The position numbers and the translations under genes were made by a program. A DNA stretch of 64,000 nt, from assembly GCA_947500415.1 (NCBI GenBank), contig CANMRT010000004.1:62001-126000 (forward strand), written 5' to 3'. This document shows positions 3,338-55,849 of this stretch, in pieces. The first letter of the stretch is position 1. Each line of letters begins with the position of its first letter. The notes under the pieces were generated by a model. The model had not been told where the DNA came from. It ran no database searches and saw only the letters and a program-made list of their open reading frames with translations. Source of the stretch: an uncultured Roseicyclus sp. (GTDB taxonomy: Bacteria > Pseudomonadota > Alphaproteobacteria > Rhodobacterales > Rhodobacteraceae).

Positions 3338-4177
3338 GTGCGCGCATTGCCGACACAACTGAACCGTAATCTGATCCGGGTCACCGGCACCGTCCTCTTG
3401 ACGTTGGTCGTAACCGCTTGCGGGCCTGCCACACTGCCCCCCGGCGACCAGGTCGTGGATGAGCATGAGGCCCGCAATCGCGCGGCCCATGAACTCAACA
3501 TCGCGCTGGATCGTGCCGTGCTTGGCCCTTCGTCTGACGCCTATGGCAACGCGGTGCCAGAACCGATCCGTGATGGCGTGTCCAACTTCGCCTCCAACCT
3601 CAGCCAGCCGGGCTATGTGTTGAACAACCTGCTGCAACTGCGCTTGGGTGAGGCCGCGCAAAACACGGTGCGCTTTGCGATCAACACCACCATCGGCATC
3701 GGCGGGTTGATTGACGTGGCATCGGAAATTGGCCTGCCTGCGGAATCGACAGACTTTGGCGAAACCCTGCACATCTATGGCTTTGGTGAGGGCGACTATA
3801 TCGTCCACCCGGTCCTCGGGCCGTCGACCACACGCGACACCGTCGGCAGGGTTGTCGACTTTGCGCTGAACCCGATCCGCCACATCGTCGATCCACCCGA
3901 AAGCTACTACCTGACCGCAACATCAGTGGCCTCTGGTCTAGACAGCCGGTATCAGTTCGACGGCACCATCGACTCGGTGCTCTATGAAAGTGCAGATAGC
4001 TACGCCCAGCTGCGCTCACTCTACCTGCAACAGCGCCGGTTTGAGCTTGGCGGCGCCGCCGTCAGCTATGAAGATCCCTATGCTGGCGACGATCCTGCTG
4101 CCGCAGCCGAGGCTGTCGCCGCCGATCCCTACTATGACCCTTACTCGGACCCGTATTTTGATCCCTATGCCCAATAA
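3338..4177 (+). CDS. mlaA: MlaA/VacJ-family outer-membrane lipoprotein
   Basis: I place the start at the GTG at 3338, which has GGGGGA directly upstream, rather than the TTG at 3326 inside that motif. The protein has a basic N terminus, a hydrophobic segment and a lipobox (LVVTAC), followed by the VacJ core with NFASNLSQPGYVLNNLLQ, RFAINTTIGIGGLIDVA, FGETLHIYGFGEG and GPSTTRD. MlaA removes misplaced phospholipid from the outer leaflet of the outer membrane and hands it to the Mla retrograde pathway. The C-terminal tail is unusual, rich in Asp, Pro and Tyr (repeats of DPY). It overlaps mlaC by 11 bases, an arrangement that fits co-translation of the donor and the periplasmic shuttle. Confidence 0.93.
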   Translation: MRALPTQLNRNLIRVTGTVLLTLVVTACGPATLPPGDQVVDEHEARNRAAHELNIALDRAVLGPSSDAYGNAVPEPIRDGVSNFASNLSQPGYVLNNLLQLRLGEAAQNTVRFAINTTIGIGGLIDVASEIGLPAESTDFGETLHIYGFGEGDYIVHPVLGPSTTRDTVGRVVDFALNPIRHIVDPPESYYLTATSVASGLDSRYQFDGTIDSVLYESADSYAQLRSLYLQQRRFELGGAAVSYEDPYAGDDPAAAAEAVAADPYYDPYSDPYFDPYAQ

Positions 4178-52286: not shown

Positions 52287-52571
52287 TCAGCAGTAAGGCG
52301 CACCGCGACCTTGACCAGCGGCGTCAGAAATCGCCCCGGTGTCCGCATCCGTCGCACCGGTCGAAACACCGCCCGAGCCACGCGGGCAACTGGCTGAGTC
52401 CGTCCAGGCGCCATTGTCGGCATCAGCGGCAACTGCAGCCGTCGGGATCGTCGCAACCGCGCCAGCAGCACCACCAGCGGCCATCAGGCCCATAAAGCGG
52501 CGTCGGCTTTTTGTACGATCTGTCGCGATCTCAGCGTCGATCAGCGTCTTTTGTTTCTTGCCATCGGACAT
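52287..52571 (-). CDS. Tat-exported Cys-terminal small protein, paralogue 1
   Basis: A 94-residue protein. After a hydrophilic Lys-rich start comes a twin-arginine signal (KSRRRFMGLMAAGGAAGAVA), cut near AVAAD. The ~45-residue mature part is acidic, glycine-rich and ends QGRGAPYC. It shares DNGAWTD, GRGSGGV-like RGSGGVSTG and the final GRGAPYC with the two neighbours at 52727 and 53197. Its GGAGCTTCGGCC leader lies just before the start. Role unknown; the repeated Asp/Asn/Gly motifs suggest calcium binding or a modification target. A conserved promoter precedes it. Confidence 0.75.
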   Translation of the reverse strand: MSDGKKQKTLIDAEIATDRTKSRRRFMGLMAAGGAAGAVATIPTAAVAADADNGAWTDSASCPRGSGGVSTGATDADTGAISDAAGQGRGAPYC

Positions 52572-52615
52572 TGGCCGAAGCTCCTGTATTGTCTGAGACT
52601 ACCAAATTGGCCTTG

Positions 52616-52644
52616 AATCTGCCTGATCTGGCCTTTTCGGTCAA
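52616..52644 (-). promoter_or_regulatory. Putative promoter of paralogue 1
   Basis: TTGACC and CAGATT are 17 bases apart on the minus strand, ending about 45 bases before the ATG. TTGACC lies 68 bases from the start codon, matching 69 and 66 in the other two copies. The -10 overlaps a GATTC site. Confidence 0.5.
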
Positions 52645-52726
52645 TGCGGGCAAACCGCCAGATGACCTACGAACCAAACCCCCGCCCAGATAGAGCGGTG
52701 GCTTTCCTCTGTCTGTGAGGAACGAC

Positions 52727-53026
52727 CTAGCAGAATGGCGCGCCGCGACCGTGACCACCTAGATCTGTGCCGGTCGAACCATCATCCGCATCAGAAATGC
52801 CGGTATAGACGCCGCCGCTGCCGCGACCGCAGCCGCCAGTGTCGGTCCACGTGCCATTGTCGCTATCAGTCAGCGCCTGCGCTTGGGTCTCGCTTGGGGC
52901 AAGCGACCCAACCGCACCGGCCACGCCAGCGGCGGCCATCAGGCCCATGAACCCACGGCGTCCCTCAGGGCGATCCGTCACAATCTGTTCGTCCGTCAGG
53001 GTCTTTTGTCTATTGTCGCTGGACAT
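52727..53026 (-). CDS. Tat-exported Cys-terminal small protein, paralogue 2
   Basis: A 99-residue paralogue: twin-arginine region EGRRGFMGLMAAAGVAGAVG, cut near TQAQA, then an acidic mature part with TDSDNGTWTD, GCGRGSGGVYTGISDADDG and GTDLGGHGRGAPFC at the end. Three cysteines are confined to the mature region. It has the same SRRxFMGL-type signal core as the other two, and a GGAGCTTCGGCCC leader. Unrecognised function. Confidence 0.78.
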   Translation of the reverse strand: MSSDNRQKTLTDEQIVTDRPEGRRGFMGLMAAAGVAGAVGSLAPSETQAQALTDSDNGTWTDTGGCGRGSGGVYTGISDADDGSTGTDLGGHGRGAPFC

Positions 53027-53071
53027 GGGCCGAAGCTCCTCTGCTCGTCTGGCTTTACTCAATGGCCTTGG

Positions 53072-53100
53072 CATTAGCCGCAACACTCCTTTGCGGTCAA
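53072..53100 (-). promoter_or_regulatory. Putative promoter of paralogue 2
   Basis: TTGACC and CTAATG on the minus strand, 17 bases apart. TTGACC lies 69 bases from the start codon. Confidence 0.5.
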
Positions 53101-53138
53101 TGCAGGCGATCCTGCAGTTCATGCCAAAGTCGCCCACG

Positions 53139-53170
53139 AAAAAGGGGCCGACACATCCCGTGACGACCCC
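53139..53170 (-). terminator. Likely terminator of paralogue 3
   Basis: On the minus strand, a 7-bp stem GGGGTCG / CGGCCCC (one G-T pair) with a 13-base loop is followed by five T. It lies 26 bases after the paralogue 3 stop, so paralogues 2 and 3 are transcribed separately. Confidence 0.7.
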
Positions 53171-53196
53171 TTCCAATCATGTGATGGAAACTGCGT

Positions 53197-53499
53197 TTAG
53201 CAGCCGCCGCGGCCCTGGCCGCCCAGATCAGTACCGGCAGAGCCGTTGTCGGCGTCGGTGATGCCGGTGTTGTAACCACCCGAGCCACGGCCATAGCCAA
53301 CAGCGTCGGTGCACGAGCCGTTGTCGCTATCGGTGTAGCCAGTTTGTGCCACAGCCGATCCGGCAGTCACACCCACAACGCCTGCGCCTGCAGCAACACC
53401 GCCTGCGGCCACAAGGCCCATAAAGCGGCGGCGGCCCTCAGGGCGCTCTGTGCCAATTTCCGCGTCGGAAAGGGTCTTCTTTTTCTTATCGCTGGACAT
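53197..53499 (-). CDS. Tat-exported Cys-terminal small protein, paralogue 3
   Basis: A 100-residue protein with the strongest twin-arginine signal of the three (PEGRRRFMGLVAAGGVAAGA), cut near AVAQT. The mature part reads as repeats of a DxDNG/GxGRGSGG theme: TDSDNGSCTD, GRGSGGYNTG, DADNGSAGTD and GGQGRGGC at the end. It is closest to the divergent JmjC/cupin gene, 163 bases from its start. The GGAGCCTTGGCTC leader differs slightly. Its role is unknown. Confidence 0.78.
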   Translation of the reverse strand: MSSDKKKKTLSDAEIGTERPEGRRRFMGLVAAGGVAAGAGVVGVTAGSAVAQTGYTDSDNGSCTDAVGYGRGSGGYNTGITDADNGSAGTDLGGQGRGGC

Positions 53500-53541
53500 G
53501 AGCCAAGGCTCCTTTCTTGATGTCTTGCTGTATCGACGCGG

Positions 53542-53570
53542 ACCCTGTCCGATGTTTTTCGCTCGGTCAA
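53542..53570 (-). promoter_or_regulatory. Putative promoter of paralogue 3
   Basis: TTGACC and a poor -10 (CAGGGT) on the minus strand, 17 bases apart. TTGACC lies 66 bases from the start codon. The -35 and spacing match paralogues 1 and 2. Confidence 0.4.
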
Positions 53571-53662
53571 TCCCGGGACTCATGTATGCAGCAATCCGAT
53601 TGAACATAGCGCCTCACCGTGGTCTGAGTGTCACGATTGAACGCCATAACGAACGAGCCAGC

Positions 53663-54844
53663 ATGATGAGCCAGCCTTTCAGCTTTGACTGGGCAATTGC
53701 GCCCGAGACGCCCGAGACTTTCTTTGCTGAGTATTTTGAGAAAAAGCCCATGCTCATCAAGCGGGGCCAGCCAGATTATTTCGCCGATCTGCTGAGTTAT
53801 GCTGAGATTGACCGCGTCGTCTCGACGATGGGTCTCAACCACCCTGAGATTAACGTCACCAAATCCGACGGCAATATCACCCCCGCCGACTTCGCCTATG
53901 AGACCGGGCAGATTGACCCCGTTCGCGTGAACCAGCTCTTCGCCGACGGGGCCACTGTGATCTTGTCGGGCCTGCATGAGCGTCTGCCCCAGCTCGCCCG
54001 CTACTGCCGCGGCATCGAGGCCGCGATGTCGGCCCGTGCCCAGACCAACATCTACATGACCCCTCCCGGAAATCAGGGGTTCAACCCGCACTACGACGGC
54101 CACGATGTGCTGGTCCTGCAAATCTCGGGCTCCAAGGAATGGCGCATCTACGGCACGCCCGTTGAACTGCCCCTCAGTGATCAGGCTTTTGAGCGTGGCA
54201 TGGATGTCGGCGAAGAGGTGGACCGCTTCGTTTTGGAACCTGGCGACACGCTTTATGTGCCGCGCGGCGTGGCCCACGACGCGGTCGCCACCGACGACAC
54301 CTCGCTGCACATCACTACCGGCCTGATGTTCCGCACCTGGGCCGATGTGCTTGCCGAAGCAGTCATCGCCAAGGCGCATAGGGAGCCAGAGATGCGCCGC
54401 GCGCTGCCCCCCGGTTTTGCCAATCACGGTGCCGACCTGACCGCCCATGAAGACACCTACAAACACCTCATGGAGCTTCTGGCCGAGGCTCCGGCCGCCA
54501 AGCTGCTAGCCGGTTTCCGTGAAGATTTCCTGACCGGTCGTCTGCCTCGTGTCGAAGGGCAAATGGCGCAGCTCGCCGCCTTGGATAGCCTGACCACAGA
54601 CAGCCGCGTGGGCGCACGCTCGCACCTTATCTACGGGCTTCACATGGAAGAGGAAGACGAACAGGTCCGCCTGTCCTGTCAGGGTGCTGAGATTGTCATG
54701 CCGGACTTCGCCGCTTCAGCGATGGAGTTCTGCCTGACCAATCCAGAATTCCGCCTCGGCGACATGGGTGGCGACTTGGATGATGCAGGCAAGCTTGTGC
54801 TCGCCAAGCGCCTTGTCCGCGAAGGCCTGATGCAAGTGCTCTAA
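53663..54844 (+). CDS. JmjC/cupin_4-domain Fe(II)/2-oxoglutarate oxygenase
   Basis: A 393-residue protein from ATG 53663 or 53666. The jelly-roll has the iron-binding HxD in FNPHYDGHDVLVLQIS, GSKEWRIY and the distal His in LEPGDTLYVPRGVAHDAVAT; DTSLHITTG closes the core. A helical C-terminal region with a winged-helix-like part resembles the ribosomal oxygenase (RoxA/MINA) family, which hydroxylates ribosomal protein side chains. Thus a ribosomal substrate is a real alternative. The gene is divergent from the paralogous Tat-exported small proteins, 163 bases from the nearest start, which could be substrates. Which of the two is correct is undecided. Confidence 0.85.
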   Translation: MMSQPFSFDWAIAPETPETFFAEYFEKKPMLIKRGQPDYFADLLSYAEIDRVVSTMGLNHPEINVTKSDGNITPADFAYETGQIDPVRVNQLFADGATVILSGLHERLPQLARYCRGIEAAMSARAQTNIYMTPPGNQGFNPHYDGHDVLVLQISGSKEWRIYGTPVELPLSDQAFERGMDVGEEVDRFVLEPGDTLYVPRGVAHDAVATDDTSLHITTGLMFRTWADVLAEAVIAKAHREPEMRRALPPGFANHGADLTAHEDTYKHLMELLAEAPAAKLLAGFREDFLTGRLPRVEGQMAQLAALDSLTTDSRVGARSHLIYGLHMEEEDEQVRLSCQGAEIVMPDFAASAMEFCLTNPEFRLGDMGGDLDDAGKLVLAKRLVREGLMQVL

Positions 54845-54868: not shown

Positions 54869-55360
54869 TTACCAGTTCCCCGGGCAGCTTCCGGAGTGGC
54901 ACCGGATAACCTCTTCCAACATGCCCGGATGGGTGTCGTGAAAGACATTCCCCGGGCACGCGCCTGAATCCAAAACATATGCACCGTTCACCACACGGAA
55001 GAAGAACAATCCGTAGTCCACATTTGACGCGCCACCGCACCAAGACGCGGTGCAAGTGACATCTACGGTCACCGGAACGGTGCTTTGGTTGTTGAAATTG
55101 CTGCCATTGAACAGCCCGCCCGCAAACTGCGCCGGTTGTGTGAAACCCACCATTACCTGCGGTGCGCCTGCCAAAGGCGCGGCTCCACCGGGCGGATCGC
55201 TGGGGCCCGTCAACACAAGCGAGCCCGCACCAATCACGTAGTCCGCCGGGCTTTCCGCCGCGTTGGTGTAAGTGCCGGCAACGGTCGGCTGCAAACAGCT
55301 GAGCGCTGAGGCCGGGCCAGCGGCCGCAATGGCAATTGCAAAGGCAAAATATCGGATCAT
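54869..55360 (-). CDS. Secreted Cys-rich protein of unknown function (paralogue 1)
   Basis: A 163-residue protein from ATG 55360 with AAAGGAG upstream. It has a signal peptide (IRYFAFAIAIAAAGPASA) and eight or so cysteines. Features shared with the next gene are AxYxx-type ADYVIGAGSLVLTGP, CxxxxCGG near the middle, YGLFFFRVVNGAYVLDSGAC and a C-terminal block MLEEVIRCHSGSCPG. The two are tandem paralogues and co-oriented with rppH. Their roles are unknown; an extracellular disulfide-rich domain is expected. Confidence 0.75.
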   Translation of the reverse strand: MIRYFAFAIAIAAAGPASALSCLQPTVAGTYTNAAESPADYVIGAGSLVLTGPSDPPGGAAPLAGAPQVMVGFTQPAQFAGGLFNGSNFNNQSTVPVTVDVTCTASWCGGASNVDYGLFFFRVVNGAYVLDSGACPGNVFHDTHPGMLEEVIRCHSGSCPGNW

Positions 55361-55393
55361 CTCAAACTCTCCTTTACTCAGCATTGACCTGCT

Positions 55394-55849
55394 TCAGCGA
55401 CACTGTCCTGCATGACACTGCACCGCGGTCTCCATGTCCTCGACCGTTGGGTCGTAGTGGATCAAGCCACCGCATCCGCCGATAAACAGCGAGAGACCCT
55501 GGGTGTCGCGCTCAAAGAAAAACAAACCATCACGTTCCGCAAAATGCGCGCTACACCCGCCGCCCTGGCACTGGCTATTTACTTCGATGGCCTCACTCCA
55601 GCCCGGGGCAAATCCACCTGTCGTCAGGATCGCACCATGAAAGCGCGTCATCTGGCGATAACTTCCCTGGTCATCCGTCGCTTCACGCGGGCCCGTGTTC
55701 TCCAGATACCCCACAGCAACGACATAGTCGGCCTCGGACGCTGCGGCGAATTCATAGTTGGCCGAAACGCTCGGCGACCCTGAGCAACGCAAAGCCAAGG
55801 CAGGCGTCGCTGAAAATACGGCCAAGACAATAATCGCTGCTCGGATCAC
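55394..55849 (-). CDS. Secreted Cys-rich protein of unknown function (paralogue 2)
   Basis: A 151-residue protein. Its start is GTG at 55849 overlapping the rppH stop by four bases (GTGA), so the two are translationally coupled. Signal peptide IRAAIIVLAVFSATPALA; the mature part has EADYVVAVGYLENTGP, QCQGGGCSAHF, DGLFFFERDTQGLSLFIGGC and METAVQCHAGQC in the same order as paralogue 1. Six or so cysteines are conserved between them. Position after rppH is shared within this locus only as far as can be seen here. Confidence 0.78.
   Translation of the reverse strand: MIRAAIIVLAVFSATPALALRCSGSPSVSANYEFAAASEADYVVAVGYLENTGPREATDDQGSYRQMTRFHGAILTTGGFAPGWSEAIEVNSQCQGGGCSAHFAERDGLFFFERDTQGLSLFIGGCGGLIHYDPTVEDMETAVQCHAGQCR

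What the first reader, a model, noticed from the sequence alone, without database searches (positions are those of the whole stretch)
52287..54844. Three Tat-exported Cys-terminal peptides beside a JmjC/cupin oxygenase: possible modification-export system
Seen: three tandem paralogues (94, 99, 100 residues) with nearly the same twin-arginine region, acidic glycine-rich mature parts containing DxDNG and GRGSGG themes, and a terminal cysteine (GAPYC, GAPFC, RGGC). Right beside them, divergent, is an Fe(II)/2-oxoglutarate oxygenase of cupin_4 type. Known: cupin_4/JmjC enzymes hydroxylate Asp, Asn, His or Arg side chains in proteins; peptide hydroxylases of this class exist in RiPP pathways. Inference: the small proteins may be substrates, folded and modified in the cytoplasm and then exported through Tat. 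The alternative is that the oxygenase hydroxylates a ribosomal protein as RoxA does.
Basis: partly seen in the sequence, partly recalled or inferred. Interest (0 to 1): 0.75.

Follow-up and report, generated by a model that had tools for sequence, protein, structure and literature searches.

The report
Oxygenase-paired, Tat-exported aspartate repeat peptides
A small oxygen-using enzyme sits beside genes for secreted, aspartate-rich repeat peptides in bacteria of several phyla, which strongly suggests that the enzyme chemically modifies these peptides before they leave the cell.

Summary
Three tandem Tat peptides (94, 99, 100 aa) lie divergent to a JmjC_2 (PF08007) oxygenase with an intact HxD...H triad. 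In 295 genomes of the family, 9 carry a close oxygenase and the same 9 carry strong peptide matches, always adjacent. In 385 genomes of the class, 11 of 12 with a close oxygenase have the peptides, against 0 of 32 with only a distant JmjC_2 and 0 of 341 others. Of 80 named loci, 77 have a neighbouring peptide.

The terminal cysteine is incidental (45 of 129 peptides). Conserved are a leader, T-L-x-D-x-D-I-x-T, in many lineages, and a core unit near TDxDxGxxxDPxGxGRG in tandem copies. Some leaders occur without a Tat signal. Streptomyces clavuligerus has a 48-aa peptide with a similar leader and two DxDPxDP cores beside a 35%-identical oxygenase.

Best reading: a RiPP-like pathway whose oxygenase modifies the repeats, most likely hydroxylating Asp, before export; a metal-binding envelope role is speculative. 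JmjC_2 enzymes in RiPP-like contexts are already noted in print; I found no report of this exported repeat family. No chemistry is shown.

The parts
53663..54844 (+). JmjC_2/cupin_4 Fe(II)/2-oxoglutarate oxygenase, 393 aa (P0004)
   Evidence: PF08007 E 3.3e-29; H143, D145, H205 and K158 invariant in the 61 aligned sequences; closest solved structures NO66 and MINA53.
54089..54097 (+). H143-x-D145, first two iron ligands (by family pattern)
   Evidence: Invariant; role as ligands recalled from the 2OG-oxygenase family.
54275..54277 (+). H205, third iron ligand (by family pattern)
   Evidence: Invariant; role recalled.
54776..54826 (+). C-terminal motif LDDAGKLVLAKRLVREG at the end of the presumed winged-helix domain; candidate leader-binding element
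   Evidence: Recognisable where leaders are present, degenerate in the leader-less clade; strict pattern in 0 of 21 control oxygenases, 18 of them ordinary. Binding is inference.
53197..53499 (-). Tat peptide 1, 100 aa (P0003)
53449..53475 (-). Leader motif TLSDAEIGT of peptide 1, upstream of the twin arginines
   Evidence: Profile of 55 distinct leaders: T-L-x-D-x-D-I-x-T.
53416..53436 (-). Twin-arginine motif GRRRFMG of peptide 1
   Evidence: Read; TIGR01409 just under cut-off.
53284..53334 (-). Core repeat 1 of peptide 1, TDSDNGSCTDAVGYGRG
   Evidence: Invariant columns; unit profile.
53206..53259 (-). Core repeat 2 of peptide 1, TDADNGSAGTDLGGQGRG
52727..53026 (-). Tat peptide 2, 99 aa (P0002), two core repeats
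52287..52571 (-). Tat peptide 3, 94 aa (P0001), two core repeats

Best explanation
The locus is a minimal two-part RiPP-like system. Shown by sequence: a JmjC_2 oxygenase of a distinct subfamily is linked, across several phyla, to small precursor proteins made of a leader (T-L-x-D-x-D-I-x-T, in many but not all lineages), usually a Tat or Tat-lipoprotein signal, and tandem Asp-rich core units. Inferred: the oxygenase's C-terminal winged-helix (RRE-like) domain holds the leader while the JmjC domain modifies each repeat in the cytoplasm, most likely by hydroxylating Asp in the TDxD...D part. The finished protein is then exported by Tat, released or lipid-anchored, and displayed in the periplasm or on the envelope. 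Tat may be favoured because it moves finished, folded proteins (recalled), leaving time for the modification. The most likely use is binding of metal ions (Fe3+ or Ca2+) by rows of Asp/hydroxy-Asp; this last step is weakly supported.
For: (1) Co-occurrence and linkage: 9 of 295 family genomes have both, none has a strong peptide match alone; in the class sample 11 of 12 genomes with a close oxygenase have the peptides, adjacent in all 11, against 0 of 32 with only a distant JmjC_2 and 0 of 341 others (Fisher p 2e-20, which ignores relatedness). (2) 70 of 80 named loci have a peptide by profile at E<=0.01 within 1.5 kb of the oxygenase; 0 of 58 far regions of the same loci and 0 of 20 control loci; 7 more of the 80 were read by eye. 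(3) One genome (Nioella 4-12; L085, L116) has two diverged oxygenases, each beside its own peptide type. (4) Repeat units are kept at protein level while synonymous codons drift: L104, 11 units, 5% amino-acid differences but 40% of same-residue codon pairs differ; L123, 8 units, 6% against 46%. (5) The leader is kept irrespective of export route: 58 of 63 leader proteins carry RR; five do not, among them two Bacteroidetes lipoprotein-like peptides and a signal-less Chloroflexi peptide. (6) S. clavuligerus: leader SLEPDEI, two DxDPxDP cores, then oxygenase, S9 peptidase on the other strand, ABC transporter (two such cores in 4 of 200,000 shuffles). (7) Other enzymes on the same side of the tree (L060, L061, L140) lie beside LanM and a Nif11 precursor, YcaO/TfuA and radical SAM, or lantibiotic dehydratase. 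(8) Print: PF08007 JmjC proteins with RRE-like folds whose closest bacterial homologues appeared in RiPP-like contexts (PMC12710340, passage); BipG, a JmjC-domain enzyme, hydroxylates ornithine in a RiPP precursor (PMC12707348, passages). (9) Asp rather than Arg: GRG is lost from the repeats in several branches (L105, L108, L116, L147; L099; L119, L121, L135, L143; L122; S. clavuligerus) while Asp stays. (10) Metal: FTR1 iron permease and TonB receptor upstream in L109, TonB receptor in L115, PepSY_TM gene overlapping the oxygenase end in L119.
Against: No modification has been observed. Six of the nine family loci share one chromosomal context, and the named loci contain near-copies, so these are not independent. 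G494 has a close oxygenase and no peptide match in its genome (contig ends 28 bases past the gene); L093 and L140 have none nearby, and L126 starts inside the gene. In most lineages Arg of GRG is about as conserved as the third Asp (69% against 71%), so Arg is not excluded as a target; L119, L121, L135 and L143 keep one terminal GRG, and L122 one. Peptides of L109 and L115 are filed here on leader, Asp content and position, not on the repeat unit. The leader/C-terminal motif pairing was lost in one clade only, so it is one event. The C-terminal domain gave no convincing sequence match in Pfam or PDB, and its fold could not be modelled. Iron-related neighbours were seen only in two related Bacteroidetes loci and, more loosely, Pseudomonadales; unlinked peptide copies lie by varied genes.
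Confidence: 0.62

Rival explanations
1. The same pairing, but the target is Arg in the GxGRG loop, hydroxylated as ycfD does to Arg81 of L16.
For: Arg stands at 69% of the aligned position and GRG is frequent; ycfD hydroxylates the beta carbon of an Arg (PMC4295552 passages). That the L16 site is also glycine-rich is recalled, not tested.
Against: GRG is absent from the repeats in several lineages that keep the oxygenase. The closest solved relatives are NO66 and MINA53, not ycfD.
Confidence: 0.15
2. The same pairing, but the oxygenase does other 2OG chemistry on the peptides, such as cyclisation or desaturation.
For: 2OG-dependent macrocyclisation in RiPPs is named in a title in the reference list of PMC12710340 (that paper is not held).
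Against: Cores have few nucleophiles: Lys 0.3%, Cys 1.0%. Hydroxylation is the reaction described for NO66, MINA53 and ycfD (passages).
Confidence: 0.13
3. The enzyme is a ribosomal oxygenase and the peptides are neighbours by chance or shared descent.
For: Nearest solved structures are ribosomal oxygenases; some loci share synteny.
Against: Patchy presence (11 of 295 genomes at E<=1e-10) tied to the peptides; the association holds in differing contexts, orientations and phyla; a long, fully supported branch separates it from 18 ordinary JmjC_2.
Confidence: 0.05
4. The peptides are not substrates but partners, for example regulators or scaffolds, of the oxygenase, which acts on something else.
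For: No modification is shown; peptide genes also occur far from the oxygenase gene.
Against: Up to 13 similar units per protein (L102) and RiPP-type neighbours of sister enzymes look like multi-core substrates.
Confidence: 0.05

Closest known systems
JmjC_2 (PF08007) proteins with RRE-like domain in RiPP-like contexts (PMC12710340)
   Same: Same Pfam domain; closest bacterial homologues reported in RiPP-like genomic contexts (passage).
   Different: The passages and section 7 that I read name no such precursor, leader motif, repeat core or Tat export.
BipG of biphenomycin biosynthesis (PMC12707348)
   Same: JmjC-domain hydroxylase acting on a ribosomal precursor peptide (passages).
   Different: Targets Orn in a multi-enzyme antibiotic pathway.
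Bufferins, oxazolins and DAG-RiPPs (MNIO/DUF692)
   Same: Precursors carry export or lipoprotein signals and are modified by an iron enzyme; bufferins chelate copper (PMC12452194 abstract start and passages; PMC12636315 section 12).
   Different: MNIO not JmjC, Cys-containing precursors, Sec signals; the words Tat, twin-arginine, JmjC and cupin gave 0 hits in PMC12452194.
Ribosomal oxygenases NO66, MINA53, ycfD
   Same: Same fold family; P0004 matches NO66 at E 8.2e-32.
   Different: They act on ribosomal proteins (passages); this subfamily is tied to exported repeat peptides and is a separate branch from ordinary JmjC_2 of the same class.

Membership tests
PF08007 JmjC_2 2OG oxygenase | Profile match above cut-off | tested here: met
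   101.5 bits against 22.
PF08007 JmjC_2 2OG oxygenase | HxD...H iron triad | tested here: met
   H143, D145, H205 invariant in 61 sequences.
PF08007 JmjC_2 2OG oxygenase | 2OG/Fe(II)-dependent turnover | not testable with these tools
   Needs an enzyme assay.
Ribosomal oxygenase (ROX) | Ribosomal protein substrate | not testable with these tools
   No proteomics; indirect evidence is against.
Ribosomal oxygenase (ROX) | Groups with known ROX enzymes on a tree | tested here: inconclusive
   Separate side of a branch of length 2.4, support 100, from 18 ordinary JmjC_2 of the class; NO66, MINA53 and ycfD themselves were not in this tree.
RiPP pathway | Short precursor with leader and core next to a modifying enzyme | tested here: met
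RiPP pathway | Recognition of leader by RRE or equivalent | tested here: inconclusive
   Leader/C-terminal motif pairing, but one event, and no convincing sequence match; structure jobs never started.
RiPP pathway | Post-translational modification of core | not testable with these tools
   Needs mass spectrometry.
RiPP pathway | Leader removal by protease | tested here: inconclusive
   S9 peptidase beside the S. clavuligerus case; in the window only signal cleavage is expected.
Tat substrate | Twin-arginine signal | tested here: met
   TIGR01409 over cut-off for P0002, just under for P0001 and P0003; RRxF motif in all three. Export itself is untested.
Bufferin/MNIO RiPPs | DUF692 enzyme beside Cys-containing Sec precursor | tested here: not met
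   Enzyme is PF08007; precursors are Tat-type and Cys is not conserved. The resemblance is one of working principle.

The most novel reading that the evidence does not exclude
A widespread class of exported bacterial repeat proteins whose Asp units are hydroxylated in the cytoplasm by a dedicated, leader-guided JmjC enzyme and then carried out by Tat, forming metal-binding envelope proteins: a bacterial counterpart, in principle, of the hydroxylated secreted proteins of animals.
Probability: 0.35. Interest if true: 0.85.

Novelty: new variant of a known kind. Interest (0 to 1): 0.74.

Why it matters
It gives a clear, testable substrate to a branch of JmjC_2 oxygenases whose plasmid members are annotated mostly as 'cupin domain-containing protein'. 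It links them to exported, mostly multi-core precursors in Alphaproteobacteria, Gammaproteobacteria, Myxococcota and, in variant form, Bacteroidota, Acidobacteriota, Chloroflexota and Actinomycetota (by record titles, several of them metagenome bins), and suggests Tat as an export route for modified ribosomal peptides. A two-gene system with up to 13 repeats is easy to reconstitute in a laboratory strain.

Tried and rejected
Terminal cysteine as the functional site: rejected (45 of 129 peptides; absent from the two C2 paralogues). Known family for the peptides: in Pfam and NCBIfam only Tat-signal or signal-region matches were found for the window peptides and for the 21 peptides of A4, apart from chance-level hits; the L115 peptide matches a chryseobasin-related RiPP model weakly and below cut-off (17.9 against 40 bits, residues 36-58, its signal region). 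One weak PDB hit for A4, E 0.0096, Ancylostoma secreted protein, was not pursued. A third conserved gene: none recognised in the neighbourhood clustering, where other shared sets looked confined to clades or generic; gene calling there was crude. RRE match by sequence: none. Weak A1 hits at E 1e-4 to 1e-3 in 8 further genomes were not counted as peptides; most cover only the signal region, two (G131, G040) reach further in long ORFs, and I did not read any of them. A strict regular-expression count gave 53 of 80 loci, 0 of 18 controls and 0 of 58 far regions; I use the profile count because the expression misses two-repeat peptides. The sorting of leader against C-terminal motif left 14 of 61 rows unclassified and put L100, whose leader differs by one residue, in the leader-less group; several of the 14 have leaders by eye in other calls.

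Structure prediction was asked eleven times and always met a full queue; fold searches were therefore not run.
Full report
What is there. The minus strand of 52287-53499 carries three tandem genes for small Tat proteins of 94, 99 and 100 residues, and the plus strand from 53663 to 54844 carries a 393-residue JmjC_2 oxygenase. The three are paralogues. Two more lie elsewhere in the genome (contig C2); these have a lipobox-like GVSGC and no terminal Cys. Beside them is a 72-residue ORF with the same leader and TDxD repeats but no Tat motif; G084 has a similar 74-residue ORF. The oxygenase is the only PF08007 match in the genome.

Does the pairing hold? In 295 genomes of the family, P0004 matched 11 at E<=1e-10. 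Nine are close (E below 1e-77). The peptide profile A1 found strong matches (E<=1e-12) in exactly those nine genomes, each with a peptide next to the oxygenase; eight are divergent, and in G011 one peptide is co-directional and one lies on the other strand. The other two genomes, G250 and G286, hold distant JmjC_2 genes, which lie in evident RiPP clusters: LanM with a Nif11-type precursor, and YcaO/TfuA with radical SAM and two JmjC_2. Six of the nine close loci share chromosomal context, so shared descent explains part of the family signal.

Wider test. In 385 genomes of the class, an oxygenase profile (A3) matched 44 genomes at E<=1e-40, with a clear gap: 12 genomes better than 1e-100, 32 at 1e-57 or weaker. 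The peptide profile A4 (E<=1e-8) matched 11 genomes, all among the 12, with a peptide beside the oxygenase in every one by the coordinates of both calls. The twelfth, G494, has no peptide match; its contig ends 28 bases after the gene. Fisher's test gives 2e-20, which ignores relatedness. The family, class and named-locus samples overlap in part (G000 is in both genome samples). Several genomes have further unlinked peptide genes, for example on five more contigs in G523.

Named loci. A scan of one genome per species gave 187 relatives of the oxygenase, of which the best 80 were kept; the other 107 were not seen, and some of the 80 are near-copies. A profile from 17 peptides finds a peptide in 70 of 80 at E<=0.01, all 70 still when only 1.5 kb on either side is searched; 58 far regions of the same loci give 0. 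Control loci give 0 of 20: 18 distant JmjC_2 of the class with 1.5 kb flanks, which are the best-scoring part of the 32 genomes, plus L060 and L061. Seven of the 80 are the contigs that supplied profile seeds, judging by equal contig length, so 63 of 73 is the cleaner figure. Of the ten misses, L099, L115, L119, L121, L122, L135 and L143 have a peptide on reading. L093 and L140 have none, and L126 starts inside the gene. That makes 77 of 80. Arrangement varies: divergent in many Rhodobacteraceae loci, co-directional upstream in Maricaulis, downstream in L092 and L128.

Anatomy. Among 129 distinct peptides, 501 distinct stretches anchored only on TD show D at position 4 in 87%, G6 71%, D10 71%, G13 71%, G15 78%, R16 69%. 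Cores are 24% Gly, 13% Asp and 10% Arg, with almost no Lys or Glu. The set was itself picked by Asp, Gly and RR criteria, so these figures describe it and do not prove its make-up. Units within one protein differ little in amino acids but much in synonymous codons, which points to selection on the unit and not recent copying. One peptide is fused to a peptidoglycan-binding domain (L210), and one sits between ftsZ and lpxC (L213).

Leader. In one search, 63 Asp-rich ORFs carry the leader pattern, 58 with twin arginines after it and five without: two own-family ORFs with no export signal, two Bacteroidetes lipoprotein-like peptides and one Chloroflexi peptide with no signal. So the leader does not depend on Tat and is better read as an enzyme-recognition element. 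The Maricaulis and Pseudomonadales peptides lack it. The oxygenase's C-terminal motif LDDxGKxVLxRRLxREG goes with it: it is recognisable in the leader-bearing rows and degenerate in the Maricaulis/Pseudomonadales clade. A strict pattern for it matches 37 of 61 subfamily members, some misses being small departures, and 0 of 21 controls, of which 18 are ordinary (one truncated) and three are from L060 and L061. On the tree this loss is one event, so it is a lead only.

Tree. With 82 rows, the peptide-associated oxygenases and the RiPP-cluster ones (L060, L061, L140) lie on one side of a branch of length 2.4 and support 100, the 18 ordinary JmjC_2 on the other (quick method, some long branches, NO66/MINA53/ycfD not included). 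Peptides without GRG in their repeats occur in several separate branches.

Outside Proteobacteria. A plasmid search gave 20 records, 16 of them Streptomyces clavuligerus. In the one that I opened, a 48-residue protein, annotated hypothetical, with leader SLEPDEI and two DxDPxDP cores lies directly before the oxygenase, followed by an S9 peptidase on the other strand and an ABC transporter. Two such cores arise in 4 of 200,000 shuffles of that peptide. The same DxDPxDP string occurs in 24 of 129 Tat peptides. The S. clavuligerus enzyme ends in GKLVLVRRLMQEGLLTLA. Other plasmid relatives lie near LanM and NHLP secretion genes (Pseudanabaena) or radical SAM/SPASM (Rhizobium etli); the Dolichospermum and Streptomyces NBC_00435 cases show no clear repeat peptide.

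Which residue, what for. Repeats that lost GRG keep Asp, so Asp is the better guess; Arg is not excluded, and some of these proteins keep a single GRG outside the repeats. Function is open. In two related Bacteroidetes loci the pair follows a TonB receptor, in one also an FTR1 iron permease, and a PepSY_TM gene overlaps the oxygenase in Pseudomonadales; the other loci that I looked at showed no such pattern. I rate metal binding as the most likely use, at roughly one in three.

Print. In open-licence PubMed Central only. PMC12710340 (passages, abstract and section 7 seen) notes PF08007 JmjC proteins with RRE-like folds and bacterial homologues in RiPP-like contexts, so the enzyme class as a RiPP enzyme is not new. 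PMC12707348 (passages) shows a JmjC Orn hydroxylase in a RiPP. PMC12636315 (abstract and section 12) and PMC12452194 (passages) describe signal-bearing MNIO RiPPs. PMC13060819 (passages) reports Asp hydroxylation in a RiPP by PesHI. PMC6006756 and PMC4295552 (passages) cover ribosomal oxygenases, and PMC10783134 (passages) mentions a Nif11/cupin cluster. I found no description of Tat-exported Asp-repeat precursors of JmjC enzymes in the listings; subscription papers are mostly not covered.

Verdict. I file it as a new variant of a known kind: a RiPP-like, JmjC-modified, Tat-exported multi-core family.

Noticed in passing
L007:9539-9757 (own genome, contig C2) and L063:10835-11059: 72- and 74-residue ORFs with the leader and TDxD repeats but no Tat motif, next to Tat-lipoprotein peptides: possible cytosolic substrates.
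   Followed up: partly
window 54869-55384 and 55394-55849, minus strand: Two similar small secreted-looking, Cys-containing proteins directly after the oxygenase (endings CHSGSCPGNW and CHAGQCR); no family searched.
   Followed up: no
L061:6869-15264: RiPP cluster with precursor-like ORF, two JmjC_2, two further dioxygenase-like ORFs by eye, radical SAM and a TfuA-YcaO fusion.
   Followed up: partly
L060:3309-8013: LanM-type synthetase, JmjC_2 and a Nif11-type precursor: a possible hydroxylated lanthipeptide.
   Followed up: partly
L210:6355-7164: Repeat peptide fused to a PG_binding_1 domain, pointing to the cell envelope.
   Followed up: partly
L213:6071-7096: Repeat peptide gene between ftsZ and lpxC.
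   Followed up: partly
L214:5404-5985: Curlin-like repeat ORF close to an unlinked peptide gene, by eye.
   Followed up: no
L224:3672-6197 (Streptomyces sp. NBC_00435): Two tandem cupin/JmjC-like genes followed by MFS, M13 and S9 peptidase genes; a 31-aa ORF at 3489-3584 is a possible precursor.
   Followed up: no
L108:6001-8366: Two tandem oxygenases of this subfamily beside one short Asp-rich Tat peptide.
   Followed up: no
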